Positions 8,165-36,887 of a stretch of 64,000 nucleotides of DNA are shown in pieces. Every line of letters starts with the position of its first letter. The stretch's first letter is position 1. The notes under the pieces were generated by a model. It did no database searches. It had not been told where the DNA came from and saw only the letters and a program-made list of their open reading frames with translations. The stretch is from positions 1,240,001 through 1,304,000 of the forward strand of contig OY725490.1 of the NCBI GenBank assembly GCA_963281255.1, given 5' to 3'. This DNA is from Aphrocallistes beatrix (Eukaryota > Porifera > Hexactinellida > Sceptrulophora > Aphrocallistidae). Both the position numbers and the translations under genes were made by a program.

Positions 8165-11100
8165 TCAGATATTTAGAATTTCGGAGTATTTAGTGGGTGG
8201 AATCGGAGGTCTCTTTCTTCCAGTGTCTCTTCTGTCAAACTTTAATAATTCAGCGTACATAACACCACTCTGTGAAGAAATTAATTCCAAATTATAGATA
8301 CGAGCATAGTAGTAATTTTCATACATAATCATTAGAGATTAAATCAATTCAATTACAAAAATCATCCGAATACTGTTGAGTTTATTCTTTCATTATAAAG
8401 TGGACCTAGCTTCAAAGAAATAACTCTTCATAAAGCAACTAATTCTAATTGTCTTATTGGTGCATACTCATACTATTTAGCACAGTTGACTCCGCTTAAT
8501 AGGGTCAGCTGCTTAATCGGGTCACTTTTGATAAGACCGAAATAGCTTTACACATAGAAGCTAATACAAAATATTTTCGGTTAATAGGGTTCTCCGCTTA
8601 AATGGGGCAAAATGTCCTCTGACCGATGTGACCCTATTAAGCGGAGTCAACTGTATAACTCCCCTAATCGTGTTTATGTATCTGGGCTAATTATGCTAAT
8701 TATGGGAAACATAATATTTGATGAGTACATAGTAGCCCCATTTAAACAATATACATACCTTCACTTTATTCTCGTATCTAGATAAGAGAAAGAACTAGTG
8801 TAATAAAGTGAACTTATTAGACAAATAATTTCTGATTACTTCCAGTATTTTTAAATAAAATAAATATAAATAGTAGTATTTATAATACAAAATTTACCTT
8901 TGTATCTGATAGTCTTTTCTGCATCTATACATAAACAAGATGAGAAATTTAAAACTCTGGAAACATTTAAAAAATTCAAAGTAACTAACTCATACCTTTT
9001 TCTTAAACAGTGAAATCCCATTCCAACCAATACGATGAGAACGAGGAGAATAAGAGATAAAAATCCAAAGATGTATCCAATGAGGTGTATCCAGGAAATT
9101 TGAGCTAAACAGAGGCTTAACGATAAATATACTCACATGAGAGATTATATAACCGTGTATTTCCTGAATATCATCTAGGGGGATTATTGCGTTTTTGTAT
9201 CATTTACCCGTGATGAAAAAATAAAATTTCGGAAATGAGAGACTTTTAACTGAATTCTTGGATAAACGGTAGAAGGTAGAATTGCATTAAAACTATACTA
9301 GCAAACCTAAGTCAACACTGGTCAACCTTTAGATGTAAAATGAAAAGTGAAATTCTAAGTATAACAATGGTGACAATGTTCTCTTAATTCCTTGGAGAGT
9401 TGACATTTTTATGAGATTCATACTTGCTCGAGTCAGTCTGACAAGATACTGTGATGTGCCAGAAACTGGTTTTCTGCTATTGATAGTTTACCTCTAACAT
9501 TGCTCAGTCCCTAAGTGAAATATCAAATATTTTTTCATTATTCCAGTTTCAAATTTGAGTAATTCATTGATAATTCATGAATTAGTCAACTTATCTCAAT
9601 CGTTTCTATTTATCTATCTTCAGTATCCAACAGGATTATTCTCTTCTGCATGCATTCAATGCACTAACGTAACTCAATTAGAAGCGGGTAGCTGTATGTA
9701 ATTTAGTTTACTTTATTACTATACTGATTTGATGATGGTGACTATATTGTTTACTTACTGGTATTGGAATCAGAAGTGTAGGGCAGTATAGTAGTATTGG
9801 TACTAGGCTTAGCTGTCTGTGTATTATTAGACGAAGTTGTAGCTGGAGAGATGGCAGGATTGTCTGAATAAAAAATACAATAGTATACCACCACGGTGTT
9901 GATCAAAATTGATGTACTGTTGACTAAATACAATGATATTTCTGACATACCTGATTTATAGAAACATCCCATTGCTTTTCCACTGAATGACTGTCCACAC
10001 TGCTGTACTATCGTCAAGTTAGCTGTAATGTTAGTCTCTACTCCATCTAGCTGAGTGAAGTTGTGAGCAGTTAGAACTGTATTGTAACTGAGTTGAGAAG
10101 ATGGTAGAGTGAAGCTAGTACTGTCAGTGTATGTGTATGTTACACCCTGTCTACTGTGAGAGTAGAGGAGTTGGAGAGAATACGAAATGTCTAATCCTGA
10201 TACTCCTGATGGCTGTGTGGGAGTAGTCAATCCCTAAATATTGAATATAACCCTGTTACAGAATGCTATGAAGGTTGAAATTTAAACAAAGCATTTTCCA
10301 CATTATAAAATATCAGTATTCCATTTATGATCAAAAAGACATCTATATTGGATGGTGCAGTCATCATAATATTCTCATTATCAAGTTGTCAAAAATGTTT
10401 CAGTAATTAAGACATGATAATTAAAACACTTCTTACTACCAAGTTTAATTAGTCGCCCTGAAAATATAAATCTTCAAATTGAAATATACAAAAATAGTCA
10501 AACAAGAATAATAACTGCTCAACTAACCCAATTGATTGTTAGATCTCCTGTGGTATTATGATAACCAAGACACACACCTTGAGAACTGTTTGTTAGTAAA
10601 TAACCTAATTGAATTACAAACATATTAAATAACTTTATTATAAGATTAAAATGTGTAAAAACTTACTTGCAACAGAATTAACATTAGTAGAGCTGTTAGT
10701 AGAGTTACCAGCACAGCTCATAGCTGTTACAGAGTACTGATAGTCAGTGTTGATATTCAGAATAATGGAGTGAATGTAACTGTTAGAATTAGTAGTATTT
10801 AGTGGAGATCCATCAAGATATAGGAAATACCTATCTACAGTTCTGTTGCTAGGAGGAGTATTCCATGATAGAGATATGTCAGCTGAGCAAGTAGCTGTGT
10901 TGAAGTTAGATACAGAACTCTGTAGACTGATAGGAGGAGAAGGAGGTGCTAAGAACAATTTAAAATAATAGATACACTCAAGGAACTTATAACACATCAC
11001 AATTTTTCATCTTAATTTTTAATAAACTAGGTCTGCTTGTAGTCAATGCATTAAAGTTATAACAGATAATACAAGTATTTCTAAAAGTGTCGATGGACAA

Positions 11101-12013
11101 ACCGATAGTTCAGTGTTTTGGTAAGTGACTATGTTACATAATACAGCAGTTTCAACCTTTTTTGGCCACTGAATTATAACTAATATAGCAATAATTCTAC
11201 ATTCTGTGAATATAGTCCCAGTTCATTTTCCATCTTCACAAGTGTAGAAACTAATTAAAATTTTTATCTATGTTTCAAGACTGCATAAAATCCGATTGGC
11301 GTTTTCTAGGACAATATTTTGTTAATATTTCCATTTAAAAAGTAAACCCAAATTTCGTTTTTATAAAGAGGCACTATAAAAATGGTTACATAAGAAATGA
11401 AATTATTATAAAGGTGAGAAGCATGATAAGTTTACACATACCAGCTCCAACTACTCGATGAGTTATGATTAACATTTTTGACACATCTGGTTCAATCTCT
11501 CTCATATCAACCATGCATCCGATAGGAATGCCTTCATCTGAGCTGTTGTAGACAAAAGAGATATATCCGTTTACACTCCTCAAAGATCCAATTGGTATAT
11601 AAGGCTGGAATCGATTTAAATCAACACCTTTATAGCTACAAATACCGATATTTCGGCATCCAAAAATTGCATTCTCAAGCCCGTTAATGTTGAAGCTAAT
11701 TTCTGTGGCAGTGAATGTGTATCCATCATTCGGTACAGTTAGTACACAGCTGACTGTGATGCTCTCTCCTTCACACGCATAATCAGGATTCTGTGTTATT
11801 GAAGTACCTGAAAAGAGAATGATAGCAAGAATTATATTAGAGTAAGAATGGTGAGTTAGTAGTGGAAGAAGTATGTGTAATTAAGTCCATGGAATATACT
11901 AGCGACAAATGTAAACTGCATCTAAAATAGAATTGAATTTGAATAGTTCCTTACTTACCATAGAGGAGAATAAGATGTGTGGAGAGGAGAAATATTTGGA
12001 AGAGTTTAAACAT
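8165..12013 (-). CDS. Ig/FN3 transmembrane receptor C with ITIM- and ITSM-like tail
   Basis: Complete family member, ten exons on the minus strand, total 1428 nt (475 aa). Exons: 11959-12013 signal peptide (MFKLFQIFLLSTHLILLYG); 11442-11807 Ig-like (GTSITQNPDYACEGE ... IPIGC); 10667-10948 FN3A (LSW, RYFLYLDG, YSVTAMSCAGNS); 10528-10604 and 9951-10233 FN3B; 9759-9863 Ser/Thr/Asn stalk with several NxT/S sites; 8996-9104 transmembrane helix ending HCLRKR; microexons 8898-8924 and 8759-8777; last exon 8165-8269. Splice sites are GT-AG with phases 1-1-1-0-1-1-2-2-0. The last exon reads SGVMYAELLK then RPPIPPTKYSEILNI: VMYAEL fits the ITIM consensus and TKYSEI the ITSM consensus, 23 residues apart. 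Type I membrane protein, probably an immune-like or self-recognition receptor (inference). It lies head to head with gene D. Confidence 0.85.
8483..8653. mobile_element. 'GCTTAATNGGG' MITE
   Basis: Inverted ends CAGTTGACTCCGCTTAATAG and CTATTAAGCGGAGTCAACTG (perfect 20-base arms), about 171 bp, with TA on the right side. Lies in the intron before the last exon of gene C. The size and TA target fit a Tc1/mariner-pogo derived MITE. Confidence 0.8.
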
Positions 12014-12110
12014 GTTTATCTAATTGTCAAATCTTCAGTTAACTTCCTTTTAACAGCAACAAACTAATGGAAAATCAATATTATCGATCGACAGAGTGAT
12101 AGTGCAGCTT

Positions 12111-12117
12111 TTTTATA
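12111..12117 (-). promoter_or_regulatory. Possible TATA box of gene C
   Basis: The minus strand reads TATAAAA about 100 bases upstream of the gene C start codon, inside the inverted duplication shared with gene D. Gene D's arm lacks a clean match at the same place, so support is weak. Confidence 0.3.
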
Positions 12118-12731
12118 AATTTATATATCATAAATATGGATAATAGTTCAATCTAATGTTGAAACCGTTGAAATCTAGTCTCTTGCATATAAATGAGATT
12201 TGTTTACTATATATATCGATTGTAGATAAAAATAAACAAATATTTATCACATAGTTTTGTGTGATAAATATTTTTTTATGTTAGTTTTGAAAATGCAGTA
12301 TTTGGAATCTACACCTCTAAATACACCAGGTCAACAATTGAAAGCTATTTTCCAACATATTTTTTGTGATTTTCAATTTATTATATCTTGTAAACTAGTG
12401 TATCATCATACACCCCGAAAACACAATACATTTGACACCTAAATGCCATTTTTCATATCCAAACAATTTCCCAGTTTTTCTATCGATTCAAACAAACAAA
12501 CAAAATCCTAACGTTTTAGTATTTAAGATTATTTAACATATATACATATATATCTGCACTTATGTACATACAATGTACCTCAAGCTAATTAATGCATTTT
12601 AAGTGATGTGGATATTTGACATTACTACATTGAAGGAGTCTATAGTGGAGAATATACATACCTTTCTATGCCAGTGAGTAATGTCAATTGTGAAGTAAAG
12701 TCATCTCAGGGATTATCATAAAGTATATTGC

Positions 12732-12959
12732 TAAGTTGACTAATTCCAGAATTAATGAATAATTTGAATAATTCATAATTCAGGAATTATGAAATATTCC
12801 AATAATTAAGAATCCTGAATTATGAATTATTCGAAAAATCCATTCAAATCATTAATGATATTTTCTTGTATAAAACTTTCAATTTTGAATAAGTATAGTC
12901 AGGCTTGATGAATTATGAATTATTCGAATTATTCATTAATTCATGAATTTGTCAACTTA
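12732..12959. mobile_element. AT-rich MITE with TAAGTTGAC inverted ends
   Basis: Starts TAAGTTGACTAATTC and ends GAATTTGTCAACTTA. The inner arms also pair (ATTAATGAATAATTTGAATA against its complement near 12920). A related single end lies at about 9545-9595. No coding capacity. Confidence 0.65.
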
Positions 12960-13766
12960 GGTCTATCGTGAAGTACAGTTATTTCAATGATTAAGGTCAA
13001 TCAATCGTGAAGGTAATGTCAATAATGAAACAAAGTACTCTAATTTCTGAAAAATTTAATTACTTCATCTTTTGTAATGTGGATGAACTTCAAAAACATT
13101 CAATTATAATGTCAATACATAAGATTCTACATAATGTAGCATCACCAATTCGATGATAATTAACTTCTTACGACCAGTTTCCTAACCAACGCATTATCTA
13201 ACTACGTACAAGTAGATCAACTATTGCAAATGTTCACAGGATTCACTAGTCTTTTTGTTGTTTGTTGCTTACTTGTTACTATATTTTTTAAAAAAAGGAA
13301 AAGCTTAGAATTTTAAAAGTTGCAGAATGGCAACAAGTTCACAAATATAATTAAGATTTTTTATCTTTTTGCATTATTACTAACTTTGCTCTTATTAGAG
13401 TATATAGAATTTGAATAATAATCAATTTCAATATAACATAGATCTGCTGCCCAATAACTTCTAAGTAGTATGCATCAGTCTTTTGTAAGAGACCTTTTTA
13501 CTACACAGACCAAAAGGCATTCAAGAATGTATGGCGCAATTACCACGTTAAGCCGAATTTTCTAGACTTAAGAATTGAGTAAATTGGGAAGTATTTTTCT
13601 TTTGTAAAATAAGAATCCTTTATTTACAGAGACAGTATGTAATTCACTGAATGTATATAAAATATAAAAATAGAATAGTCACAGTATGCGCAAAATTATT
13701 TTAACTCAGATTTCTTTGCATAATATCCTTGCTAATACAATTCGATTAATGTTTATATATCTCTGA

Positions 13767-14231
13767 AACGAATTGATTGAAGAATCTGCCAGGCACAGAA
13801 AGTTGATTTTCGGCATATGGGAGCCTTTTGTCTATGGCTCCACTAAGTTCTGAGCTCAGAACAAAATGTTGACTCATCATGGAATTATGACGTCATTGTC
13901 AACTTTTTAGTATTAGAATTTTCAGTTTTTCGACTATAACTCAGCCATTTTAGGTGATAGAAGGCTGAAACTTTAATAGAATGTGTATATTAATATATCA
14001 CATTTATGATATAACTCTCATTAAATAGCGATGACTCATCAATCTGTTATGCCGTCATCATTACGCATCAAAAATTGACTTATTTTGTGAGATTTCGAGT
14101 AATATCGATTATAACGGTAAGACAGACGTTTTAGGGATGTTATCCACCTTATAATTACCCAGGCACGGGCGCCTTCGGTGGACACAAAGTGTCCAACAGC
14201 CGCGTAGCGCAAGCAAGCGAATCGCGCTTGT
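13767..14231 (-). mobile_element. Hairpin-headed dispersed repeat, full copy
   Basis: Runs from AACGAATTGATTGAAGAATC to the GC-rich head (GTGTCC ... CGCGCTTGTGA). Same family as 18393-18882, 30780-31268, 49636-50050, 61238-61698 and 62446-62904. Contains the family landmarks TGACGTCAT and the GTGTCC hairpin. Here the head is slightly degraded. Confidence 0.7.
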
Positions 14232-14831
14232 GATGAATATATCTATCCATCGAGTGCAATCTCATAATTTGATATCAGATATGCAATAGCTGTCAAAGTT
14301 TAAATGGATTTGACTCTAAGGATAGATCCATTTTAGTACTAATTATGATGCAAATTAATGCTGTGTAAAAGGGAGTTAACTGAAGATCTGGCAATTAGAT
14401 AAACATGAAAATTGGCATTTAGGTGTCAAATGTATTGTATTTTCGGGATTGTAAGATGATATACTAGTTTACAATATATAAATAAAGTGAAAATCACAAA
14501 AATATGTTGGAAACTAGCTTTCAATTGTTAATCTGTTGTATTTACATAGAGGTGTAGATTTTAAATACTGCATTTTCAAAACTATGTGATGAATATTTGT
14601 TTATTTTTATCTACAATCGATATTAAAGTAAACAAATATCATAAATATGCTAGAGGCTAGCTTTCAACGGTTTCAACATTAGAATGAACTATTATCCATA
14701 TTCTATGAGGTAATTTATAACAACGGATATTCTAGAAATGTACTATCTCTCTGTCGATCGATAATATTGATTTTCCATTAGTTCGTTGCTGTTAAAAGGA
14801 AGTTAACTGAAGATTTGACAATTAGATAAAC

Positions 14832-17800
14832 ATGTTTAATCTCTTCCAAATATTTCTTCTCTCCACACATCTTATTCTCCTCTATGGTAATGGTAAGTAA
14901 GGAATTATTCAAATTCAATTCTACTTACTTAGTTCAATTTTAGTTTACATTTGTCGCTAGTAGATTCCATGGACTTAATTACACATTCTTCTTCCACTAC
15001 TAACTCACCATTCTTACTCTAATATAATTCTTGCTATCATTCTCTTTTCAGGTACTTCAATCACACAGAATCCTGATTATGCGTGTGAAGGAGAGAGCAT
15101 CACAGTCAGCTGTGTACTAACTGTACCGAATGATGGATATACATTCACAATAGTAGTAACTGATTTTATCATTGGAGAAACTAATGTTTCTTTTTCAAAG
15201 AGTGAGATTGACATGAATGAAAATCAGAATGGTTTTGATTTATCTCGATTCAATGTTGATGCACCTCTCGGAAACACAACATATGTGACTGGATCCATCA
15301 CTCTTCTCTCTTATAACAGTTCTACGGACAAAGATCTCCGTATGGGATGTCATGCTAAGATCAAGGCGGTTAATGAAACATCGATATCAGAACAATTTAT
15401 TCGAACTATTCGATTGGTTCCAGCTGGTATGTATTGTAAATTAACATAGTTGTGTTTTATATATTTTCTATCATTCTATTACTGTTAAATCCTGAAATTC
15501 AAATATCTGAAGACCACCGAATATTTTTAACATTTAATGAATTTTAATGGAGCAGCATTATCGATCTGATTGCCTCCATTCGTTGTAAATTGCCCCTCAC
15601 AGACGGGATGTTAGTGTACTTCCAACTCACTGTGATAGAATACAAGTGAAAGGTTGTGTGATTGAGTCTCAATTCCCCGATTTTTTTAATTCCTTTTCTG
15701 ATAACTCATCATGATGCAACTATGATAACGTTAGCATAATATTATGAGAGACACCCAAAATGAACATTTTACTCATCAATTCTATCTCTCGCCATTCGAA
15801 AGATATGCCCTCTGGTAAAAAGTTAAAAGATTTAGATTTGGAATGTTGGCGCCATCATAATGAAACCAGGATAATACTGTAGAAACATCCATATGAAGCA
15901 TTGTTGATTTTGCATGTTTCGAAAATCGAAGCATTGGTTGTAAATTTTATACAGTCTCATCTGCACAACATTTTCAAGTCATTTTGTTTTAAGCTGATAA
16001 GTTACGCCTGGTCGGATACAAACATTCATTTTAGAACTTTTTAGAAGTCGGTATGCTTATAGGCTATGGCTACCAGGCTACATACTTCTATTTACCACGT
16101 ACGCGGGAAAAGCATAATGTTTATAACTAGCTATATTTCCTAGCTCCTCCTTCTGTTCCTAATCTACAGAGTTCTGTATCTAACTTCAACACAGCTACTT
16201 GCTCAGCTGACATATCTCTATCATGGAATACTCCTCCTAGCGACAGAACTGTATATAGGTATTCCTTGTATCTTGATGGATGTCCACTAGCTACTACTAA
16301 TTCTAATAGTCACAATCACTCCACTATTCTTAATATCAACACTGACTATCAGTACTCTGTAACAGCTATGAGCTGTGCTGGTAACTCTACTAACAGCTCT
16401 AGCAATGTTATCTCTGTTGCAAGTGAGTTCTAATTGTTGAACATTTGTAAGAGAGTTATTTTACACATCAACAATAGTATAAAAGGTATGACCGTATTTA
16501 GGCTATTCATTAATGCGGAGTTTTCAGTATGTGTGTCTTGCATATGACAATGTTACAGGAGCACTCACAGTTAATTGGGTGAGTTCATTCTTAGCATGAA
16601 TATAACTGTAATTGGGAAATTATATCACATGTCTCAGACGAACTGTGAATTGCACTGAATTAGTAAAATAAATTTGCTTACTAAAAACATCTTATTTGTT
16701 GCACTTTGTTATTTTTATGAAAATTATTCTAATTTGGACTAATATTGCAGACAAAATAATCAAGAATATACATCATGATCTAAAATATTTCCTATATAGG
16801 GACTAAGTACTCCTACACAGCCATCAGGAGTATCAGGATTAGACATTTCGTATTCTCTCCAACTCCTCTACTCTCACAGTAGACAATATGTAACATACAC
16901 ATACACTGACAGTACTAACTTCACTCTACCATCTTCTCAACTCAGTTACAATACAGTTCTAACTGCTCACAACTTCTCGAACAATACTCAGCTAGATGGA
17001 ATACGGAGTAACATTACAGCTAACTTGATGATAGTACAACAGTGTGGACAAACATTCAGTGTGACAGCAATGGAATGTCTCTACGATTCAAGTAGTTTAT
17101 TGTCTTACTATAAATCGTGTATTATTTAGAACTGTCAATAAGTTAAAGGAATGGCAATACGTATATGAAAATAGAAATTCATGCGGATTTAACCTAACTA
17201 AAAGTCTGTCGGATATTTGTAAGACGGATACAGTCTCTCGCTTAATCGGGTCACTTTTGGCAGGACCGGAATAGCTCTCACACATAAAAGCTAATACAAA
17301 ACATTTTCGGTTAATACTCGTGGAGTTCTCTGCTTAATCAGGGCAAAATGTCCTCTGGCTAATGTGACCTTATTAAGCGGAGTCAACTGTATTTTCAAGA
17401 TTTAGGTATAAATTTAAAGCGGGCTTTCATATAATTGCCATAAATTTATTCAAACGGTTGAATGACTTACAATGACTTAATCGATAAAAAATGAGTTTGC
17501 CGAGCTGGAGGGGCAGTCGCATCCCCCAAGCCCATGTGTCCATTGAAAGAGTATGAAGTACGAGTACATATATGTATGTGTACAATATTGTTGCTACTGT
17601 ACTTTATTTGATTATTTCAAGGTAATCCTCCTACTCTACCTCCTACTCCATCAATTACTACTAGTCCTACGGATACTATGAATGCTACTAATTCTACAGG
17701 TGTGTTTATGTTTTTAATCAATGTGCTCAAAATTTCTAGACATAAACCTGACCATATTAGTATGGATAATTTTTAGTCCTATAGCACTCGCGGTAATTAT

Positions 17801-20800
17801 TATTATAAGTTGTCAACAATGAAAGGTATACGTAGTTTAATTATCCACACTTGCCAGACTTACAGTAATTATCACGCTGAATTAAGTAATCTACAATCTC
17901 TTATACTCTTATATATCATCCTTGTTTATCTCTAATTTTGATGAAACTGATACTTCATATCCCGAAAGTAATACCAGCAAGATAAATTTATAATCCACCT
18001 ACACCACCTACTCCACCTGCTTCTACAGATCCAGGTATTTTGTACATACCGTATTAGCATGAATAATGCACCCATTGACTCTTAGATTATGGTTTATACT
18101 GATTATAACTATCTATATAAGTTATTTTCTACAAGCGCGCTCCGCTTGCTTAATGCGCGGCTTAAGGACACTGTGTGTCCGCAGAGTATCACTGTAAGTC
18201 CTGGGGGTATTCAAGAAGCGGCCGATTGCTTTTCTAATTCTCTGCTAAAATGTCATTTATCTACAGTTAATCATGAATTCAGGAACTAATAGACTCAAAA
18301 TAGCTGTATTCAATCATTTATACGAAATAGAATAAGTGTGAATCGCATTATAAAAAATTAGCGCATTAAAAACAATTGCGTTTTATTATATAACAAGCGC
18401 GCTTCGCTTGCTTGCGCTGCGCGGCTGGCGGACACTTTCTGTCCGCCGGAGGCTCCCTTCGGTTGCCTGGGGTCACATTGGTTAATTATAAGGGAGATAA
18501 CATCTCTAAATACGTCTGTCCTACTGTTATAATCTATATCGCACGAAAAATCACCAAATTTATCATTTTTTCAATTTTTGATTAGTAATGATGACGTCAT
18601 AACAAAGTGATGAGTCATCACTTTTTGATGATAGTTGTATCATGTGAAATATGTTAGTATACAGATTCTATTAAAATTTCAGTCTTCTATCTCCTATAAT
18701 GGCTGAGTTATGCTCGAATAACTGTATTGCTTAACTTTTAAAAATGTGATAATGACGTCATGATTCCATAATGAGTCGACATTTTCATATTAACTCAGAA
18801 CTTAGTGGAGCCATAGCCAAAATACTCCCACATGCAAAAAATCAGCTTTCTGTCTGGCAGTTTCTTCAATCAATTCGTTACATATATATATATATATATA
18901 TGCTGACGATGCTGATTAGTCTAATTTATAAGTGCCATTTTGGGGATGAAATGTAAAATATCGCTTCAAAATTGAAAACTGTCACTCAGTAATACCCTCT
19001 GTAACCCCAAATTATGTGGTTAAACCTTGCCATGTGTTCCAGACGAGGAAATTTTCGATTGAATGCTTTTTTAAAAGTTGGTCTTCATAGTAAGGTTCAG
19101 ATAAACTGCATTTAAATTTTGGCAAAATGCAAATTCATCTCTAAAGTATTCAATAAATGCTGCACAATAAAGATATATTTATTTTTATAGATTCAGAAAT
19201 GCCAACCGTTCTTATAGCTGGTAAGTTGATTTTAATAATGTTAAAAAATTCAGAAATTATTTCACATTCAAATTAATCTCTAATGGGGGTGAAGTGCTAA
19301 GGGAGCGGTTTTATAGACATAATTTTAACTTTTCATTTGGTTGATTCTTGATTTGACCTGACTTGGACTAGAAAGTATCTTTCTAAACATCTAGACTGAC
19401 AACGTTTTGATCACAATAGTCAGAAAATAAACGAAATAAATATGCGTGATTTATTGTCCTAAAATTACTAAAAAGACTTGTAATTACTATCTTTGAATTT
19501 AACTTTAGAATGCTTAGCACTTTTATGGCTTCAGTGACATAGAAAATGGCTGGGATATCCGCGATATCGGAGACACTGTGTCCCCAGTCGGCATTCTATG
19601 TTAATCAAACCAGTTTTGGCAAAATTATTAATCATTCTATAATTCATAAAACAAATGTAAACTATATACTATTATTAAAATGTTTTTTTACGTGTTTATA
19701 TTTCATTTTAATTCAACAGTAAATTTGTTGTAATATATGAAACAACAATATAGTAATAATTAAAAAGTTAGTTGCAACGATACATGTGTGAGTATGTTAA
19801 CAGTATTAATTTAGACCTTTTAACTTATCTCTATTTAGCTATTGCTGGTGGTGTTGCAGTCCTTATTATCATTGTTCTAATCATAATCATAATAACCCTG
19901 GCAATCTGCATTTGTTGCTTGATGAGAAGAATAAATCGAAGTCAGTTTCAATTTTCTTACTTTGTGTTCAAATTAATTGTATCTTCACTAACAGAATACT
20001 ATCACCTCTAGATCCTCCCGAAAATCAATACATCGAAATGGCGTAAGCTACTAAGAAAATAATTTGCCTAAATACTTGATACTGTATTACCATAATTGTG
20101 TTTATAGTTGATAGTATTATACCATAGCCTACTCTAATAATGCCTCACAGTAGACTGAAAATCATGGACTAGGGATGAAGTAGTAGCCGAATGGATTAAT
20201 ACACGATTAGCCTAAATTCGTTAACCATGTAGAATAGCCATTAAGAATGTATTACTAGCATATATAAACATGGTATCAAAGTACACATATCCGTTGGAAA
20301 AATTTCGATTAGTAATCATAACATTGCGCAACAGGTCATTCTAAGGAGAATTTTAGTGATTTTCTAAGCTGTTTTAACCCTACAAGCGCGCTTCGCTTGC
20401 TTGCGCTGCGCGGCTTGCGGACACTGTGTGTCCGCAGAGTCGCCCTGCGGGCGCCTGGAGTTACTCAATCTAAACTATTTCTGGAATTTTTTTCCTTTAT
20501 ATATAGTACTACTTCCTATTAGGTGATAATACAACTTTTTTCTAAATTCAACGAGTTTTGAGTTATGGGTTGATTTTAAGAATGTGACCAAAACACTAAT
20601 TGCCACATAACTCTATAGTCTGTTAATTTAGAAGTAAATATTGTATTATTACCTAATAGGAAGTTGCTAATTGCCTGCCTATCAAATACGATCAAATTTG
20701 AAGACCTAGTTCTTAACAGTTTGCAGGATATGGCTCAAACTGATCAAAATGCTTTACCATAGCAACGCAGGAATGTAACAACATTCCATTTAAAAATTCT

Positions 20801-24557: not shown

Positions 24558-24622
24558 GTACATACATACGATACTTGCCAATAAATTTTCTTCACTCTAC
24601 ACACAAATACCAATTGCACAAA

Positions 24623-25408
24623 ATGAGTACTAAGCCGAGTGAATTAGAAGCGGGAGATCTCATCTACCGTCCATACGATGGGTCTGGAGGAGGAGCTACC
24701 AATGCCAGTGCGGGGGGAAGATTCGTATATCATTACGGTATCTACATAGGAAATGGCAAAGTAATCGACTTTACAAAGGATGAAGGTATTCGTGAGTGCA
24801 GCTGGGATGAGTTTGCATCTGGTTGTAAAGTCTCAAAGGAAAGGTGAGCTACTTCTTTATTTATACTTTATTTGCTACAAAGCACACATCTAGATGATTG
24901 GATAGATATGCTTCAATAAAAGTTAACGAGAAATTGTTTAGAGGTAGTGAAATGTTGTTCAAATGTTTCTAGAGTAAATAGTTGTCATTCAAAGGAGAAG
25001 ATAGTCGAGACAGCGAACTACTACTACAAAAACCCAGATAAGTGGGATCCCTACAGTCTTCGGTACAACAATTGTGAACATTTTGCTCAATTCTGTGCCA
25101 CTGGAGTCAAGAAATCTAGTCAGGTTGAAAGTGTACAGGAACTCGTTGAGTCAGTAGTTGGGATTGGAAAGGAAATTTTGAAATTAATTCCCGGCTCAGA
25201 AGTCATAAGTGATGATTTAGCAAGTTTGGGTGCGGGAAGACAAATGGAAAATCATGAACCAAAGTCTAGGTTTGAAGATGTTGATCTTAAAAAAATAAAT
25301 AGGGCGCTACTTCAGGATATTGAAAAGGCACAAGAAAGGCCGATTTTTGAGATTGAAGAGACACAAGAAAGTTCAAATGAAAAGGGAGAAGAAAAGTCGA
25401 TTTTTTAG
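24623..25408 (+). CDS. LRAT-domain (NlpC/P60-like) protein
   Basis: Two exons, 24623-24843 and 24973-25408, joined in phase 2 (GTGAGC donor, TTTCTAG acceptor), 218 aa. Opening the frame at 24947 instead would lose the join; an acceptor at 24941 runs into a stop. The N-terminal half is an LRAT-type papain-like fold: LEAGDLIYRPY, then YHYGIYIGNGKVIDF (His37, Asp49), and YNNCEHFAQFCATG with the nucleophile Cys108 in the family's NCEHF motif. Family members (LRAT, HRASLS/PLAAT) are acyltransferases or phospholipases using His-His-Cys. Here the second His position, 12 residues after the first, is Asp. After about residue 125 comes a Glu/Lys-rich tail, with no C-terminal membrane helix of PLAAT type. 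TATA box 66 bases upstream of the leader end. Substrate unknown. Confidence 0.85.
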
Positions 25409-26755: not shown

Positions 26756-26789
26756 TGAGAAAACATAACAGGGCTTACATGATTTTTCT

Positions 26790-27165: not shown

Positions 27166-27513
27166 ACATTGATGATAACAAACATGTAGTAACACGTAGA
27201 TAATCAACTATTATGGATGTTAGTTCGCAACGAAATAAATGTTTATTTATTAGTATATTTATATTACAAGTATGACGAATTTTGTGATAGGTTGTTTCAT
27301 CAGATGGAAAACTATGTCAAATAAATTTCAATACCATCAGGGAATCAAATCCACATATTTCAACTAATTTCAAAATATATTTAATATAATAATTATCAGA
27401 TATTAATATACAATAATACTATATGTACATAGATATACGGCGTATATGTTTGGTTCGAAATTAAATTCAGAAAGATGAGATACAAATATACATCCAAAGA
27501 GTATTTATACAAA

Positions 27514-27716
27514 CTATGGCGATATATCAGAAGAATGATTTGTGATCTCTTCGAAATCTTGAATTTCGGAGTATTTAGTGGGCGGAATAGGTGGTCTCTT
27601 TATTCCAGTGTGTGCTTTGAGAAACTTTAATTCAGCATACATGACACCACCCTGTGAATAAATATAATACCAAGCTATCGGTAGTGATTTATACATTTTT
27701 ATTATTAAAACTCAAT

Positions 27717-27803
<87 letters not shown>

Positions 27804-30800
27804 CCGGACAAAAGTATTCGACCACCACAGAAACCTCCATACAAATAGTATTAAAGTAGATCTGTTCACAAAGGAACACATGCTCAAACTATTAGAAATA
27901 CTCTATTTTTGATTTCTAATTCCTAATCTACACATTCTAATTACTCATAATTGAGATCCTCAACTCAATAACTAACTCCCAAAATTATAAATATCTACCT
28001 TTGATACTTGATGCTACTTGCCCCAAGTCATAGCTATTATATATGATGGCGATTAGTGACACAAAGGTTGATAATTTTCTACAGTTAGTATTGTACTAAA
28101 AATATCAAAAATTAGTAATTCGGATGTGTAGTTTACGAATCTAAAATCAAAAATAGAATATTTCTTCTGTTTGAGTACATATTCCATTATGAATAGATCC
28201 ACTTTAATACTATTTGTATGGAGGTTTTCGTGGTGGTCGAATACTTTTGTCCGTGTAGTGTAAATATATATATGTAACGAATTGATTGAAGAAACTGCCA
28301 GGACAAAAATGTCGACATTTTTTATAATTAGAAATTTTAATTAGTAATTGGTCTAGCATGCTTGATATAAATTATATATCATCCTTCCCCTAGCAAAGGA
28401 TAAGGATAATATAGATATATATGTACTATAGAAGAATAACATGAATATAATATTCTTATATTGCAATAATTCCAATATAGTCCAATCTCGTACAATTTTA
28501 GAATTTGTTTCATGGATTTAGGGATATTCTTGCAACTATGTATTCTTTTATACAAGTAGTTAATGTGCATTGTAAAAGGCGGCCAGTAAGTTTTGTCCCA
28601 AGCTCAATTGGGTTTAAAATTTGTTGAACTCCCACAATCTTGGTTATTATGGTTTGGAGATTGTATTTGGAATATCATGGATGATTTTAAGAAAAGTTTA
28701 ATACTGAAACCGTATTTTGTATGCTGAATTAAGAAAAAATGTATCCTGACTGCGAAATTTGCGAAAACTGCAAAATCACGATCACGATCCACTGCTTAAA
28801 GTAAAGATTATTTGTGAAGTGAATCAAACTGTCATTTTGGATGATTGTGCAAAATGGGATCAATATTGACTTATGAAAGGATCAGACGAAAGAAATTAGA
28901 AAATAATCTGATTCCGGCGGGTAGGTGGTCCAAACTACGCATTGAACTCTTAAACCGTGTTTTTGTAACTGAATTAATTTTTCAAACAAAAGAAAAAAAT
29001 TAGCCTTAAAGAGCTTGTAGCAGTCGATACTATTTTAAATCAACGTTCATTACCTTTATCACTTCATGCTCGTGTCTAGATAAAAGAAAATGAGTGTAAT
29101 AAAGCAAACAAAATAAACGAATCAAGTAATTATAAATACAAGATTTACCCTTGTATCTGATTCTTTCTGCATCTATCACAACGAAATGAAAGATTTAGAA
29201 CTCTGAAAACTTTTTAAATATTTCAATTTAATCAATTCATACCTTTTTCTCAAACAGTGAATAATCAATCCAATCAGAACGAGAATAATAATATTAATAA
29301 TCAGAAATCCTGCAGCAACGACGCATCCAATGATGATATGATCTAAACAGAGGCTTAAAATAAAAATAGTAAAATTGGTCTACATATTGTCTATTCATGA
29401 AAGTGAATACTTCTAAACGGTAAAGGATACAACCAATCGGGTTTCAGATTCGAAAAAATACTCATTCAAATTAGTCCGATATTTCTAATGTTTAGCATTT
29501 ATCGTGAATTCAAATTTTAAACCCTATATTTAAAAAGTGCAAAACGATAGAGCAAAAAACTGAAATTTCTAACCATTAATAAGTAATAATGATGCCATAA
29601 TTCCATACAAACTTGCTCAAAACAGTTCACACAAAATACTCTGGTGTGCCCAAATTTGTTTTCTTCTGCTGGCAGTTGTTTCATATAATTCGTAAGTAAT
29701 TACATGGAAATATATATGTGTATATTAATATATTTCACATATGATATAACTATCGTCCAAAAATAATGACTCATCACTCTGTTATGACGTCATCGCATCA
29801 AAATTTATAAATTTGAATTTGGTATAAATTCGTTTACTTACCGTTATTGAGATCAGAAGTTTGTGGTAACACAGTAGTATCATTCATCGATGTAACAGTA
29901 GGTACAGTACTATGCATCGGTGCAATGGAAGACGTAACAATAGATGTTGGTATTAATGCTGTAGTTGAAGGGGTAGCTGAATTGTCTGTACAAAAGATAT
30001 AATAATACCATATCCTCACCAATGTCTTCATCAATACTGTCCAGAAAAAAAATAGATGTATTTGTCTGAGAGAATAATGTCAAACACTAAGAATATTACA
30101 CTCAAAATAGACGTCCATCGTCTCTTCTACAAGATGACTGGTTATATTTTTTTTAAAATAGGTAATCACGATACTTTAAAAGAATTTTTGGGGATAATCT
30201 TTGACGAAGCGTCATAAATATCTTACTAAAAGGCATTTTTCAAAAATCGAAACCAGTATTCTGTAGAAGCAGATTTTTTGAATTCTTTAATCATCTCCAT
30301 ATTCTTATGCAGAATATACTTTCTATTTCTGATCAATATGTAAAATTAGTATTATTTAATATGTAAAATTAGTATAATTTAGAAAAAACTAATCACAATG
30401 AAATTGTAACATACCTGATTTTAAAAAATATTCCATTGCTGTTCCATTGAATGACTGTCCACACTGTTGTACTATCATCAAGTTAGCTGTAATGTTAGTC
30501 TCTACACCATCTAACTGAGTGAAGTTGTGAGCAGTTAGAACTGTATTGTAACTGAGTTGAGAAGATGGTAGAGTGAAGTTAGTACTGTCACTGTATGTGT
30601 ATGTTACATCTGGGCTACTGTGAGAGTAAAGGAGTTGGAGAGAATACGAAATGTCTAATTCTCTTCGTGGTATTGTAGTTGTGTTGAGTCCCTGCAATAT
30701 CAAGTCGCTAATATACAAGTATAACTGAAATGTTGCTAAATCCTTACTATTAAAACTCGATTATTGTATATATATATATGTAACGAATTGATTGAAGAAA

Positions 30801-33800
30801 CTGCCGGGCGTAGAAGGCTGATTTTTGGCATGTGGGAGTTTATTGGCTATGGCTCCAGTAAGTTCTGAGTTCAGAGCAAAATGTCGACTCATCATGGAAT
30901 TATGACGTCATTGTCACATTTTTAAAAGTTAAGCAACACAGTTATTCGAGCATAACTCAGCCATTATAGGAGATAGAAGGCTGAAATTTTAATAGAATCT
31001 GTATACTAACATACCTCACATATGATGCGACTTAAAAATGATGACTCATCACTTTGTTATACCGTCATCATTATGCATCAAAAATTTTAAAATTGACAAA
31101 TTTGGTGATTTTTCGAGTGAAATCGGTTTTATCACTAAGATGGACATATTTAGAGATGTTATCTCCCTTATAATTAACCAATGTCACCTCCAGGTGACCG
31201 AAGGGAGCCTCTGGCGGACACGAAGTGTCCGCCAGCCGCGCAGCGCAAGCAAGCGAAGCGCGCTTGTTACAAGTATTATGCTATCAGTTCTTATCAAAAA
31301 TACCTAAGATGGTTTCAATTAGAGGTAGACAAGCAATAAACTCAAATCTACCAAGAGATGACGTATGGTAAATTCTCTAACTCTTAGTCTGTATATGATC
31401 GAAACCCTTTTCATCATAATAATAGTAGATATGGCCACTACAATGCATGGAAATGGGTGCTCGTAGGATACTTCTTATGACGAAACTAACCTAGATATAT
31501 GTTAAAGTAAAATAGTCAGACAAAAGAGTAATACTCAACTAACCCAATTAATTGTGAGTTTTCCACTGACATTTTCATAAATAAGACGCACATTCTGAGA
31601 ATTATTTGTTAGTGAGTAACCTAAATGAATTCCAAACAGAGTAACCATGAATAAATTACGAGATTTCCAATTCTGCCAAAATATACTTGCAAAAGAGATA
31701 GTGTTAGCAGAGCTGTTAGTAGAGTTACCAGCACAGCTCATAGCTGTTACAGAGTACTGATAGTCAGTGTTGATATTCAGAATAGTGGAGTGAATGTAAC
31801 TGTTAGAATTAGTAGTAGCTAGTGGAGATCCATCAAGATACAGAAAATACCTATTAACAGGTACGTCGCTAGGAGGAGTATTCCATGATAGAGATATGTC
31901 AGCTGAACAAGTAGCTGTGTTGAAGTTAGATACAGAGCTCTGTAGACTGGGAGCAGGAGGAGCTAGGAAAGTGTTTAATTGTTACAAGCGCGCGCTTCAC
32001 GTACTTGTGAAGCACGGCTAGCGAACACTTAGTGTTCGCAGAGTAGCCATATGCCTGATAATGTGATCAAATTCAGAATCTCCATGGTTCACGAGATATT
32101 CGACAAATTACCAAATGTGACTAATATGATACATTGTCGAATATCACGTGAACCATTGAATTTAGAGGTCGAAATTATATTATCACTTGATAGGAAGTAG
32201 TATATTCACTATCAAATGGAATTACATTTGAATGTCAAGCTATCGCGGTTTTCAAGATATAACCCCAACTGACCAAAACACGTTTCCATAGCAACACTGG
32301 AATATAGCAACATTCCATGAAAAAAATCCAAATTTTTCGTATTATCTCATTCACATCTGAGTTCAATATGAAAACAATATTATAAAAACACTTAGAAGTT
32401 CCCTTAAACGACCTCTGAAAATCTCCAAATTTGACACAAATATAACATATTGCGCAACCATATGATGACTAATCTAAATTTTAACAACGGATATGGGTAC
32501 TTTCACACCATATTTATATATGCTGCTAATACATTCCTAAGCTCCACTGTGCTTTGCTAATGATTTAAGGCAGCTCATGTATTAGTTCAACCATCTTCTA
32601 CCGCATCCCTAGTCCCAAATCCGTAAGTTACTGTGAGGCCTTATATACAGTAGGCTATGAATTAATATATAAAGTTATTGCTTTGAAGTATCTTATATAT
32701 TAAAATGCTAGGAATTTGTGTGTGTGTTTGTCCGAATTGATTGAAGAATTGGGAAGTCATAGAGATGTGAAAATTGGCATGTAGGGGTCAAATGATATGA
32801 CTACGGTTAAGTTCTAAGATCTAAGCGAAATTTTCACATCTCTGCAAAAAAATGGAAAATAATTTTTCACACCTTTTCTATACAAAATAAATGACTACAC
32901 TATCACAATAGAAACCATTGTACGACACTACAATAGATCGTCATTGTTATTAATAATACTTCAAAGCCACAAATTATGTTTGATATCTAAATGTATTATA
33001 GTGTATGGCAATAAAAAATATTATGTGCAAATTTTCACACTTTTATATACATATTTTCACACCATTGATGAATTTTGAAAATATGCTAGAGACTAGCTTC
33101 CAACGGGTGACATGGGGTTTTCAGGGGTGTAGATTTCGAATATCATATTTTCGAGTAAATTTAATGATCAATTTGTTCACTTTTGTTTACAATAGGTACA
33201 TAAAGTAAGCAAATTACAAAAATGGGCTAGAGACTAGCTTTCAACGGTTGACATTGGGTTTTTAGTGCTGTAGATTTCGAATATTATATTTTTGGATCCA
33301 TATGAGAAATTATTCGTTAACCTTTGTGTACAATATTTATATAAAGGAAAAAATTCCCAAAATATGTTAGATTGAGTAACTCTAGGCGCCCGCAGGGCGA
33401 CTCTGTGGACACGCAGTGTCCGCAAGCCGCGCAGCGTAAGCAAGCGAAGCGTGTTTGTTATTAATTAATAGTCAGGAATCATACATATGACTTACTTGAT
33501 GCATAATTAACAATACTAGAGCTGGCGGTAGAGTTACCAGCACAGCTCATAGCTGTTACAGAGTACTGATAGTCAGTGTTGATATTAAGAATAATGGAGT
33601 GAATGTAACTGTTAGAATTAGTAGTAGCTAGTGGAGATCCATCAAAATACAGGAAATATATATTAACAGGTATGTTGCTAGGAGGAGTATTCCATGATAG
33701 AGATATGTCAGCTGAGCAAGTAGCTGTGTTGAAGTTAGATACTGAGCTCTGTAGACTGGGAGCAGAAGGAGGAGCTAGGAAAGTGTTTAATTACTATGTA

Positions 33801-36800
33801 TATGTTGCAGTGTAAATGCGAAACTGGTGTATTCGCGAATACACCGGAGGATTCGCGAATACACTGAATAGTTGGTGGATTCGCGAATACACCGGTGCAA
33901 ATGCGAAACCTTTTTATCTTAAATCTTATGGTTGATTTATATTTCTCATGGGAACAACTAGATTACAACAAAACTTTTAATCAAGATCAATGAATGTAAA
34001 ACCTTATTCTAAATCGTTTTCATGTAATCTTCAAGCTTGATAAATTATTCTTACATTACATACATCACTCCTCATGCTATGCTATATTATTTGCTTTTTG
34101 GTATGTTTTAAGTTTAAAAACTTTACTTTCTAACGCCAAAAATGTAGTTGTATAGTAGCTTTGAAAACATGTTGTTTACATCATCTTACTGTCAAATTTT
34201 TAGTTATGAAACAGCTGAGTATTACTAATAATAGTGTAAATACTACGTATTTCCTTTGAGTTATATAATTAACCAACCATAAGATTTAAGATAAAAAGGT
34301 TTCGCATTTCACCGGTGTTTTCGCGATTCCACCAACTATTCAGTGTTTTCGCGAATCCACCAGTTTCGTATTTACACTGCAACATACATATTACATAACA
34401 CCTCTTAATTTAACCAGAAATCATACTATTATGACTTACTTGAGACATAATTAACACTACTAGAGCTGGTAGTAGAGTTACCAGCACAGCTCATAGCTGT
34501 TACAGAGTACTGATAGTCAGTGTTGATATTCAGAATAGTGGAGTGAATGTAACTGTTAGAATTAGTAGTAACTAGTGGAGATCCATCAAGATACAGGAAA
34601 TACCTATCTACAGTTCTGTTGCTAGGAGGAGTATTCCATGATAGAGATATGTCAGCTGAGCAAGTAGCTGTGTTGAAGTTAGATACAGAGCTCTGTAGAC
34701 TGGGAGCAGAAGGAGGAGCTAAGGGATAAATTATATTCTGCATAGTTAACTAATTTAGGCTAATTATGTACGTAGTATTATTCCAATAGGCTACTACTTC
34801 ATCTCTAGTCCATAATTTACGATCAAATTTGAAGGCCTAGTTTTACAGTTTGCAGGAATGGCGTAAACTGACAAAGTGCTTTACCATAGCAATGCAAGAA
34901 TATAACAACATTCAATGAAAAATTCTAGATGTTTCAAATCAATTATTACTAATCTTGGTTCTACACAAAAATCATATATTAATAACATTTAGAAGTAGGC
35001 TTAAACGCTCAGAAAAAGCTAAAACCGTCCTAAAAATTACCTGTTGCGCAATGATATGATTTTAATATATGGTAAACAAAAACAACCAAAACATTTATCC
35101 TATAGAACAGAACCTCTATAAATAGAGGTGCGGCATAGTAAAACAATTGTGCATTTTGTGATAAAAGCACCAAAATTGGTACACATGTACTTTGATATAC
35201 TATGAACATTTTTGGATATTGGACCACCTGAAACGATGCCTATGTCAGCCATGACAGCTGGCCCCAAATTACCACGTCCGATTGTATTGCCGGAATTGTC
35301 TCCTATCAATAACTTCTTTTAATCACACCAGATCATATTGATTGTTAAATTCGCGTCCAGCACGAAATTTCCAGCAATTTGATATATATATTGACCATAT
35401 TTGGAGAATCTTTTTGGTTGCCCGTTCCTAGCAACGGCCAGGAATGTTGAAAAATTCCTGCTGGACACGAATTTAACAATCAATATGATCTGGTGTGATT
35501 AAAAGAAGTTATTGATAGGGGACAATTCCGGGAATACTATCGGACGTGGTAATTTGGGGCAGCTGTCATGGCTGACATAGGCATCTTTCAGCTAGCCCAA
35601 TATGATATCCAAAAATGTTCATAGTACATCAATGTACATGTGTACCAATTTTGGTGCTTTTATCACAAAATGCACAATTGTTATAAATTTCATGCAATGC
35701 CGCACCACTAAAATGGGAAGTCTCTTTATGTGTGGCAATTTTGGGTCATTTTTATTTGATTCGAAATAAATGAACCTCTATAAGTGGGGAAGTGGGGAAT
35801 TAAGGAATACAAATTTTCAGAGAAAAAATTTCCCATTTCAATGAAGTACTAAGAGGACAGTTTTCCGGGCACAATTGTCATTATGTCGATTCTTGACTTG
35901 ATCTGATTTGATTTTTGGATTTATTCAAACAATTATGACTTAATTTCTTGCGATTAAGGTACAAATCATAGTGGAGAATGGGGGAGTAGGTATATTTTCG
36001 CCGTCCCGTGCTCCCCTACTTATGGAGGTTCTACTGTAGATTCGAAAATACGAAATTCGAAATCTTCATCTTTAAAAACCCCAGGTCAACAGTTTAAAGT
36101 TAATCTTTAGCATATTTTTGGAATTTGTTACTCTATGTAACAACTGTAAACAAAAACAAACTGTATATTTATCATATCGTCCCTGTACATACCAGCTGAA
36201 TCCAATCGAAGAGTTCGAGCGAAATATTCTGACATTGAAGCTCCACTAGCCCTGATCTTATTATCACATCCCATACGGAGATTCTCATCGGTAGAACTGT
36301 TGAAAGAGAGAAGAGTGATGGATCCAGTCACATATGTGGAATTTCCGAGAGGTGTATCAGCTGTGAATCGAGATAAATCCATACCATGGAGTGCGTTGCT
36401 TTTAATTGTATGTTTAAATATCAAAATATTATTTCCAATGACGAAACTAATTTCTCTTGAAGTGAATCTATATCCATCATTCGGTACAGTTTGTACACAG
36501 CTGACTGTAACATCCTCTCCTTCACATGCATAATCAGGATTCTGTGTGACTGAAGTACCTGAGGGAAAATATAGTAAAATTCCTTTATTTAAAACGCAGG
36601 ATTTCGATTTTTTTGGCAAAAACTTCTTTGATTTCAACAAGTGTTCGCAGGAGACTCATACAGAAGTGTACGCCAGCCACACAACACAAGTAAGAGTTCT
36701 AACAGTGAGATTTATTGTGAAACTTTAATACCATATTTCTCTGAAAAAATCCCGGGGGATTTTGTGCGTATAAAAGATAAACGTCAGCTCTTATTCAAGG

Positions 36801-36887
36801 AAATATGGTAGTTCAATACTCACCATAGAAGAGAATATAATGTGTGGAGGAGAGGAGAAATATTTGAAAGAGATTAGAAATATACAT
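27514..36887 (-). CDS. Ig/FN3 transmembrane receptor E, three FN3A domains, ITIM/ITSM-like tail
   Basis: Complete family member, twelve exons on the minus strand, 2046 nt (681 aa). Exons: 36824-36887 signal peptide (MYISNLFQIFLLSSTHYILF); 36193-36558 Ig-like (GTSVTQNPDYACEGED ... LRMGC); FN3A three times at 34440-34718, 33496-33774 and 31687-31962; 31544-31620 and 30415-30691 FN3B; 29842-29985 Ser/Thr stalk; 29243-29342 transmembrane helix ending HCLRKR; microexons 29149-29172 and 29054-29075; 27514-27651 last exon. Every junction is GT-AG and the phases close. The last exon has VMYAEL (ITIM consensus) and, 22 residues later, TKYSEI (ITSM consensus) after KRPPIPP, then an acidic end. Same tail class as gene C. 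The long introns hold fold-back elements and a full hairpin-headed repeat. Use of all three FN3A exons in one transcript is inferred from phase only. Confidence 0.82.
27720..27799. repeat. (CT)n(AT)n microsatellite
   Basis: About 32 bases of CT repeats run directly into about 47 bases of AT repeats, ending at the Tc1-type MITE. Confidence 0.95.
27799..28260. mobile_element. Tc1/mariner-type MITE, second copy
   Basis: Left end TACCCGGACAAAAGTATTCG, right end CGAATACTTTTGTCCGTGTA. Sister of 21724-22198, with the same CTCCATACAAATAGTATTAA block. Inserted next to the AT microsatellite in gene E's last intron. Confidence 0.75.
30780..31268 (-). mobile_element. Hairpin-headed dispersed repeat, full copy
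   Basis: Begins GTAACGAATTGATTGAAGAA after (TA)n and ends GCGAAGCGCGCTTGTTAC. The hairpin GGCGGACACGAAGTGTCCGCC near 31214-31234 is perfect apart from the loop. Intron of gene E. A partial body copy lies at about 29700-29815 and a tail fragment at 28276-28320. Confidence 0.85.
31980..32660. mobile_element. Worn relative of the 20.1 kb fold-back element
   Basis: Carries the GC-rich head (about 31984-32045) and then the landmarks ATTGCGCAAC, ATGATGACTAATC and ACTGTGAGGC ... AGTAGGCTATGA shared with 20880-21120. Intron of gene E. Confidence 0.6.
33802..34385. mobile_element. MITE with TTCGCGAAT-rich inverted ends, between FN3A exons
   Basis: Inverted arms begin ATGTTGCAGTGTAAATGCGA and end TTTACACTGCAACAT. 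Each arm holds repeats of ATTCGCGAATACACC or TTTTCGCGAATCCACC, then AAACCTTTTTATCTTAAATC and its complement. About 584 bp with a non-pairing AT-rich middle. Lies exactly between two FN3A exons of gene E. Confidence 0.85.
35095..36036. mobile_element. Large fold-back (pogo-like) element in gene E
   Basis: Two long arms (about 35129-35371 and 35448-35706) are near-perfect reverse complements, for example CAATTGTGCATTTTGTGATA and its partner, with a non-pairing centre of about 75 bases. Outer ends are GAACCTCTATAAATAGAGG and, at the right, TTATGGAGGTTCTACTG, which resembles pogo/Tigger ends. No transposase frame. Confidence 0.7.

What the first reader, a model, noticed from the sequence alone, without database searches (positions are those of the whole stretch)
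8165..36887. ITIM plus ITSM tail pairs in an invertebrate Ig/FN3 receptor family
Seen: the last exons of B, C and E encode LHYLDI/TSYANI, VMYAEL/TKYSEI and VMYAEL/TKYSEI. The first motif of each pair fits the ITIM consensus (S/I/V/L-x-Y-x-x-I/V/L), the second the ITSM consensus (T-x-Y-x-x-V/I), with 22-23 residues between the tyrosines and a conserved PP-x-IP-x-T-x-Y linker. Known: vertebrate inhibitory receptors such as PD-1 use this order with similar spacing, and Hydractinia Alr proteins have ITAM/ITIM-type tails. Inferred: an inhibitory or self-recognition receptor system, probably convergent in detail. Four genes keeping both tyrosines while other tail residues change suggests selection.
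Basis: partly seen in the sequence, partly recalled or inferred. Interest (0 to 1): 0.9.

Follow-up and report, generated by a model that had tools for sequence, protein, structure and literature searches.

The report
Sponge immune-type receptors with paired tails
A sponge chromosome carries a 1.3-million-base cluster of cell-surface receptor genes whose inner tails look like the on and off switches of vertebrate immune receptors, which makes it a testable candidate for how the simplest animals tell self from non-self.

Summary
Four window genes encode, in one tail exon, an ITIM-like then an ITSM-like motif, tyrosines 22-23 residues apart; all four join a transmembrane exon in frame in prediction. 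The pair alone is weak evidence (3 seen, 0.26 expected); paralogues are strong. Of 17 tail exons on one contig, 15 are intact; all 15 keep both tyrosines and the ITSM threonine, while the 26 other ungapped columns change 3.5 times on average. The window lies in a 1.3-Mb complex (78 of 87 Ig-like matches). A second tail class (31 matches; 22 read) carries YVPM and YANL. In the one pair compared it shares gene B's FN3 stem (92 and 96%) but not its Ig-like domain (37%): a paired-receptor layout. The genome encodes a SHP-2-like phosphatase and p85-like genes. Mitochondrial atp9 makes a sponge very likely. Inhibitory and activating signalling and self-recognition are inferred: no RNA, binding or polymorphism data, and the Ig fold is unproven.

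The parts
11442..11807 (-). gene B, Ig-like exon, phase 1-1
   Evidence: family HMM; splice sites; Ig fold not proven
10667..10948 (-). gene B, FN3 exon (FNX), phase 1-1
   Evidence: Pfam fn3 borderline for the homologous exon in frame 2097-2543
10528..10604 (-). gene B, first part of a second FN3-like domain, phase 1-0
   Evidence: FN3 reading is inference
9951..10233 (-). gene B, second part of that FN3-like domain (FNY), phase 0-1
   Evidence: no Pfam match for the homologous frame 2991-3317
8996..9104 (-). gene B, transmembrane exon, phase 1-2, runs into CLRKR
8759..8777 (-). gene B, linker exon (YENKVK), phase 2-0
8165..8269 (-). gene B, tail exon VMYAEL/TKYSEI, with stop
36193..36558 (-). 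gene D, Ig-like exon, phase 1-1
34440..34718 (-). gene D, FN3 exon 1
33496..33774 (-). gene D, FN3 exon 2
31688..31963 (-). gene D, FN3 exon 3 (HMM hit; donor not settled)
30458..30691 (-). gene D, FNY domain (HMM hit; acceptor not settled)
29243..29342 (-). gene D, transmembrane exon
29054..29075 (-). gene D, linker exon (HEHEVIK)
27514..27651 (-). gene D, tail exon VMYAEL/TKYSEI, with stop
4589..4936 (+). gene A, Ig-like domain (HMM hit)
5736..5849 (+). gene A, transmembrane exon
6536..6558 (+). gene A, linker exon (acceptor chosen to keep the frame)
6746..6862 (+). gene A, tail exon LHYLDI/TSYANI, with stop
40174..40539 (+). gene E, Ig-like domain 1 (HMM hit)
41667..42038 (+). gene E, Ig-like exon 2, phase 1-1
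44461..44571 (+). gene E, transmembrane exon
45263..45330 (+). gene E, linker exon with a further ITIM-like motif VTYSQV (acceptor chosen to keep the frame)
45505..45642 (+). gene E, tail exon FHYLEI/TNYVDI/TQYVSL, with stop
14979..17126 (+). gene C, Ig-like and FN3 exons of the same family; its tail was not resolved (a transmembrane candidate is at 19772-20008)
1642..1761 (+). decayed class-2 tail sequence (PYEYIDI...QDYV) upstream of gene A

Best explanation
The window is a slice of a roughly 1.3-Mb sponge gene complex of single-pass receptors (Ig-like domain, FN3 stem, transmembrane segment). Shown from sequence: two tyrosine-bearing tail classes occur in one family, and in the one class-1/class-2 gene pair compared in full the FN3 stem is nearly identical while the Ig-like domain is not. 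Predicted by eye only: a tandem array of members with a short tail. Inferred: the outer Ig-like domains bind varied partners. Class-1 tails (ITIM-like then ITSM-like), once phosphorylated by Src-type kinases, dock the tandem SH2 domains of the SHP-2-like phosphatase and damp signalling. Class-2 tails (YxxM and YxN) dock PI3K p85 and Grb2-type adaptors and promote it. The balance decides the cell's response to contact, most likely with self or non-self tissue. Exchange between genes (gene conversion or unequal crossing-over) keeps stems alike and recombines outer domains with tails.
For: 15 of 15 intact class-1 tails keep Y1, Y2 and the -2 threonine; a neutral simulation keeps one such codon in all 15 in 33 of 20,000 runs. 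TM, linker and tail join in frame in 4 of 4 window genes with a resolved tail. Basic residues follow the TM segment, so the tail is predicted cytoplasmic. SHP-2-like gene at C8: the N-SH2's best PDB matches are SHP-2 (E 1.6e-73); C-SH2 and PTP domains follow on the same strand. SH2-iSH2-SH2 order at two loci. Class-2 tails: of 22 read, YE[YC]I 22, YxxM 20, C-terminal YANLK 22. Gene B against one class-2 gene: FN3 dS 0.13 and 0.09, Ig-like dS 2.2. 78 of 87 Ig-like matches on C3:518,281-1,833,866. Splice phases form one consistent chain in gene B, a possible stalk exon apart.
Against: No transcript, phosphorylation or binding data. A SHP-2-like gene is a general animal signalling enzyme and does not by itself show coupling; the PTP domain's top PDB matches are receptor PTPs, ahead of SHP-2. 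Both iSH2 matches are below Pfam's cut-off. Only 11 of 15 intact class-1 tails fit both strict consensuses (13 ITIM, 12 ITSM; rows). Two of 17 tail exons are broken. Tails were found by likeness to tails with both tyrosines, and the 20 class-2 copies fetched were the better-scoring ones. Two of the 26 non-tyrosine columns are invariant too. Ig assignment is weak. Polymorphism cannot be seen in one genome. No clear positive selection on Ig-like exons.
Confidence: 0.55

Rival explanations
1. The tyrosine motifs are endocytic or sorting signals (Y-x-x-hydrophobic, AP-2 type) of adhesion proteins, not SH2 docking sites.
For: YLDI, YAEL, YSEI, YANI and YVDI all fit Y-x-x-hydrophobic.
Against: AP-2 signals need no set residue at -2 (recalled), yet T at Y2-2 is invariant in 15 of 15 and Y1-2 is V, L, M or F in all 15. 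The pair spacing is kept at 22 or 23 in the four window tails. Of 22 class-2 tails read, 18 carry YVPM and 22 YANL.
Confidence: 0.2
2. These are innate receptors for microbes or symbionts that use inhibitory and activating tails; self-recognition is not their job.
For: A NACHT gene lies beside the family in the window; large receptor families in sponges are discussed as microbial sensors (recalled).
Against: Nothing here tests ligand type. A variable outer domain on a conserved stem fits either reading.
Confidence: 0.3
3. Tails are alike only because of recent duplication and gene conversion; the tyrosines carry no function.
For: Stem exons are homogenised (dS about 0.1) and the class-2 tails read are nearly uniform.
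Against: Class-1 tails are diverged (pooled pS 0.52, pN 0.34 over 105 pairs; 3.5 changes per non-tyrosine column) yet the tyrosines never change in the 15 intact copies.
Confidence: 0.07

Closest known systems
Hydractinia allorecognition complex (Alr family)
   Same: A clustered family of unusual Ig-type receptors (41 members reported, passages of PMC11999971); ITAM/ITIM motifs reported on candidate genes (passages of PMC12065747).
   Different: Sponge, not cnidarian; FN3 stems; ITIM-then-ITSM pair and a separate YxxM/YxN tail class. Huene et al. 2022 itself is not held, so its tails were not compared. No homology test of the Ig domains was possible.
Botryllus fuhc fester co-receptors (FcoR)
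   Same: Clustered IgSF receptors with ITIM or hemITAM tails, read as inhibitory and activating members (passages of PMC12065747).
   Different: FcoR has a V-type Ig, a sushi and two C2-type Ig domains (same passages); here one or two Ig-like domains and FN3. hemITAM was not searched for here.
Vertebrate PD-1 and BTLA type inhibitory tails
   Same: ITIM followed by ITSM with similar spacing and SHP-2 as partner (recalled).
   Different: No homology of ectodomains shown; PD-1 spacing was not measured in a call; some sponge members have further tyrosines in the linker exon or at the C-terminus.
KIR, LILR and SIRP paired receptors
   Same: Clustered genes with alike stems and opposed tails (recalled).
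   Different: The second class here has its own YxxM/YxN tail rather than a charged transmembrane residue for an ITAM adaptor; the outer domain differs strongly between the two genes compared.
Sponge aggregation factor
   Same: Candidate for sponge allorecognition (Grice et al. 2017, cited in the passages of PMC12065747; not read).
   Different: Different molecule: secreted proteoglycan core, no signalling tail (recalled).

Membership tests
ITIM | [SIVL]-x-Y-x-x-[IVL] in a tail predicted to be cytoplasmic | tested here: met
   13 of 15 intact class-1 tails strict; F or M at -2 in the other two (rows)
ITIM | phosphorylated tyrosine recruits an SH2 phosphatase | not testable with these tools
   only the presence of a SHP-2-like gene was shown
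ITSM | T-x-Y-x-x-[VI] | tested here: met
   12 of 15 strict; L twice and M once at +3; T and Y in 15 of 15 (rows)
ITSM | switching by SAP/EAT-2-like SH2 adaptors | not tested
   62 SH2 matches were not sorted for SAP-like genes
Immunoglobulin superfamily | Ig fold | tested here: inconclusive
FN3 | Pfam fn3 profile | tested here: inconclusive
   one exon E 2.3e-5, 24.9 bits, cut-off 25; the FNY frame tested had no match
Paired receptors | members with alike ectodomain stems but different tails in one cluster | tested here: met
   one pair in full: FN3 92 and 96%, tails unrelated by eye; opposed function not tested
Hydractinia Alr family | homology to Alr Ig domains | not testable with these tools
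   no Alr sequences at hand
Allorecognition locus | polymorphism and linkage to graft outcome | not testable with these tools
   one genome only

The most novel reading that the evidence does not exclude
This is the sponge histocompatibility complex: a germline paired-receptor system in which variable Ig-like domains on a homogenised FN3 stem are read out through an ITIM/ITSM 'stop' tail and a YVPM/YANL 'go' tail, so that SHP-2 against PI3K balance, the logic of NK-cell and T-cell checkpoints, already decides self from non-self in the sponge lineage.
Probability: 0.3. Interest if true: 0.95.

Novelty: new variant of a known kind. Interest (0 to 1): 0.82.

Why it matters
Sponges reject foreign tissue, but I know of no established receptor system for it; the review whose passages were read calls the mechanisms of invertebrate allorecognition unknown and the candidate proteins not conserved between sponges, cnidarians and ascidians (PMC12065747). 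A mapped complex with ITIM/ITSM tails, a second PI3K-type tail class on a shared stem, and a SHP-2-like gene in the same genome makes the question directly testable by graft genetics, RNA-seq and phosphopeptide binding.

Tried and rejected
Rejected: chance as the explanation of the tail pairs; a conversion-only explanation for class 1. Gene C's tail was not resolved. Short-tailed array at C3:1.674-1.706 Mb: seven stretches between a TM candidate and the next Ig-like exon were read by eye; five show a frame ending in FQSxGFLFYT-stop, one has the like frame running on without that stop, and in one it is not among the frames printed; splicing was not checked and a weak tail-profile match (E 0.22) lies at 1,684,220, so 'short tail without ITIM' is only a guess. 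No charged residue was seen by eye within the core of those TM stretches. A tyrosine phosphatase match inside the complex (C3:1,014,690-1,016,085) was read: a frame upstream looks coiled-coil, no Ig-like or FN3 frame was recognised by eye; no profile was run on it. Paper searches bearing on novelty: 20 of 228 listed; 10 of 10; 20 of 57; 20 of 9,869; 5 of 5; 1 of 1; 11 of 11; no listed title is a sponge receptor family with ITIM or ITSM tails. Only titles and abstract starts were seen, apart from the papers named elsewhere, and most subscription journals are not held.
Full report
What is in the window. Four genes (A +, B -, D -, E +) each end in a short exon with two tyrosine motifs: LHYLDI/TSYANI at 6746-6859, VMYAEL/TKYSEI at 8168-8269 and 27517-27651, FHYLEI/TNYVDI at 45505-45639. 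In prediction, each joins a transmembrane exon through a small linker exon, in frame and without a stop; the TM segment is followed by LRKR or SKRK. For B and D the frame follows from the splice sites found; for A and E the acceptor was chosen among several AGs so that the frame stays open, and their donors score lower. Gene B's exon phases run Ig-like 1-1, FN3 1-1, FN3-part 1-0, FN3-part 0-1, TM 1-2, linker 2-0, tail 0, a consistent chain; a stalk exon may lie between FN3 and TM and was not modelled, nor was a signal peptide exon. Gene E's linker exon adds VTYSQV. Gene C is of the same family but its tail was not resolved.

Is it more than chance. Strict ITIM-ITSM pairs: 3 in the window against 0.26 in shuffled frames; loose spacing 4 against 1.99. 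That alone is weak and the pairs are paralogues. Searching the whole genome with three tail peptides gave 17 distinct tail exons, all on contig C3 between 1,150,608 and 1,731,300. Two (L022, L023) are frame-broken and were left out. In the 15 others, Y1, Y2, the threonine at Y2-2 and one proline are invariant. The 28 ungapped columns changed 3.29 times on average on the tail tree, the 26 without a tyrosine 3.54 times; two of those 26 did not change. A neutral simulation on that tree, whose branch lengths come from the tails themselves, kept a tyrosine codon in all 15 tips in 33 of 20,000 runs. Both tyrosines show silent TAT/TAC variation. Strict ITIM 13 of 15, strict ITSM 12 of 15, both 11 of 15 (rows). 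Of 105 pairs, 65 have dS below 1.5; among these dN/dS is mostly below 1 but exceeds 1 in seven, five of them with L027, and is undefined in two. A bias remains: the tails were found by likeness to tails with both tyrosines.

The complex. One Ig-like exon as query found 87 matches, 78 on C3:518,281-1,833,866 (a lower bound by the tool's own note, and a few are two pieces of one exon). At C3:1.674-1.706 Mb lies a tandem array of small Ig-FN3-TM genes, perhaps with a short tail (by eye only), followed by two Ig-FN3-FN3 units and the tail VMYAEL/TRYAEI at 1,714,699. One of five further regions showed a second tail class, TM and tail in one exon...KPAPSHPYEYI[DE]x...SGNISSPTQQQSPQDYVPMSSV...YANLK-stop. 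It has 31 matches, 30 on C3:949,337-1,611,931 and one on C6. I read 22 copies: 20 fetched, chosen from the better-scoring matches without inner stops, and 2 in L064; a third L064 copy lacks the first block and was not counted, and the remaining matches, among them weak or broken ones, were not fetched. Of the 22: YE[YC]I 22, YxxM 20, YVPM 18, YANLK at the end 22, all three blocks by the script's stricter test 19; T-x-YANL only 13. YxxM is the classic PI3K p85 site and YxN the Grb2 site (recalled).

Same stem, different tail. The class-2 gene at C3:1.0401-1.0426 Mb has the order of gene B: Ig-like, FN3, FN3, TM. Against gene B its FN3 exons are 92 and 96% identical (dS 0.13 and 0.09; the first is 90% by BLAST) while its Ig-like exon is 37% (dS 2.2) and its tail unrelated. 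Such discord in silent divergence along one gene pair points to exchange between genes. This was done in full for one pair only. Across 8 FNX exons mean identity is 0.87 (28 pairs), across 5 FNY exons 0.90 (10 pairs). There is no clear sign of positive selection on Ig-like exons: 67 pairs with dS below 0.6 give pooled pS 0.24, pN 0.18, and 2 of the 18 pairs printed exceed 1.

Partners. SH2 62 matches, PTP 155 (lower bounds). On C8:160,251-163,182 two SH2 exons and a PTP domain follow in one direction; Pfam confirms them, the PTP frame holds HCSAGIGRTG, and the N-SH2's best PDB matches are SHP-2 (E 1.6e-73, ahead of SHP-1 at 1.4e-54); the PTP exon's top matches are receptor PTPs, then SHP-2. 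SH2-iSH2-SH2 order occurs at C2:796,661-799,625 and C12:2,710,325-2,711,449, the iSH2 below its cut-off in both. Kinases were not searched for.

Which animal. Its 17,996-bp contig C28 carries atp9 and an nad3-like frame (nad3 by eye). Mitochondrial atp9 was found in all demosponges studied except Amphimedon queenslandica (passages of PMC2444032); its absence from other animal mtDNAs is recalled. So a sponge is very likely; the species is not known.

Reading. I take this as a clustered paired-receptor system. The SHP-2 and PI3K steps, and self-recognition, are inferred. Against a plain endocytic reading stands the invariant threonine at -2. The Ig fold is unproven by sequence and could not be folded. 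Closest known systems are the Hydractinia Alr complex and the Botryllus fuhc FcoRs, both reported with ITIM-type motifs (passages of PMC11999971 and PMC12065747). A sponge case with an ITIM/ITSM tail and a separate PI3K-type tail on a shared stem was not among the papers listed, of which 19, 39 and 59 listed only part. The graft transcriptome of Amphimedon (term search of its main text) holds neither 'immunoglobulin' nor 'receptor'.

Noticed in passing
window 50371-53745 (-): Long open frame of 1,125 residues with a NACHT domain (Pfam 1.5e-15) beside the receptor genes; its C-terminal part looks LRR-like by eye, but no LRR family was matched.
   Followed up: no
window 1642-1761 (+), and C3:1238497-1238580: Decayed class-2 tail sequence upstream of gene A and in the 3' part of the neighbouring gene C'.
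   Followed up: partly
C3:1.223-1.240 Mb against window 1-20000: The A, B, C gene block of the window has a duplicate just upstream (A' L019, B' L010/L047, C' L030/L063); B and B' Ig exons 95%, C and C' 80% identical.
   Followed up: partly
C4:2022946-2034517 against C3:1685238-1696809: Three stretches of the small-gene array (about 3 kb each compared) recur on another contig, inverted, at 99.9-100% identity: very recent copy or assembly duplicate.
   Followed up: partly
C3:1543359-1546739 and 1559993-1563373: Inverted near-identical pair around Ig-like exons (99.95% over 2 kb).
   Followed up: no
C15:65,915-276,551 and C2:51,758-86,825: Dense runs of tyrosine phosphatase frames, many with two domains: a large PTP expansion.
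   Followed up: no
C3:1014690-1016085 (-): Tyrosine phosphatase matches inside the receptor complex.
   Followed up: partly
window 24920-25405 (+): LRAT-like frame (Pfam 1.5e-5, just over its cut-off) between genes of the family.
   Followed up: no
window 23300-23764 (-) and 47564-48124 (-): Two copies of a protein that looks coiled-coil, 77% identical over 128 residues.
   Followed up: no
C6:1338296-1344693: A lone outpost of the family off C3: an Ig-like match and a class-2 tail match 6 kb apart on the same strand.
   Followed up: no
C28: Mitochondrial contig of 17,996 bases with atp9.
   Followed up: partly
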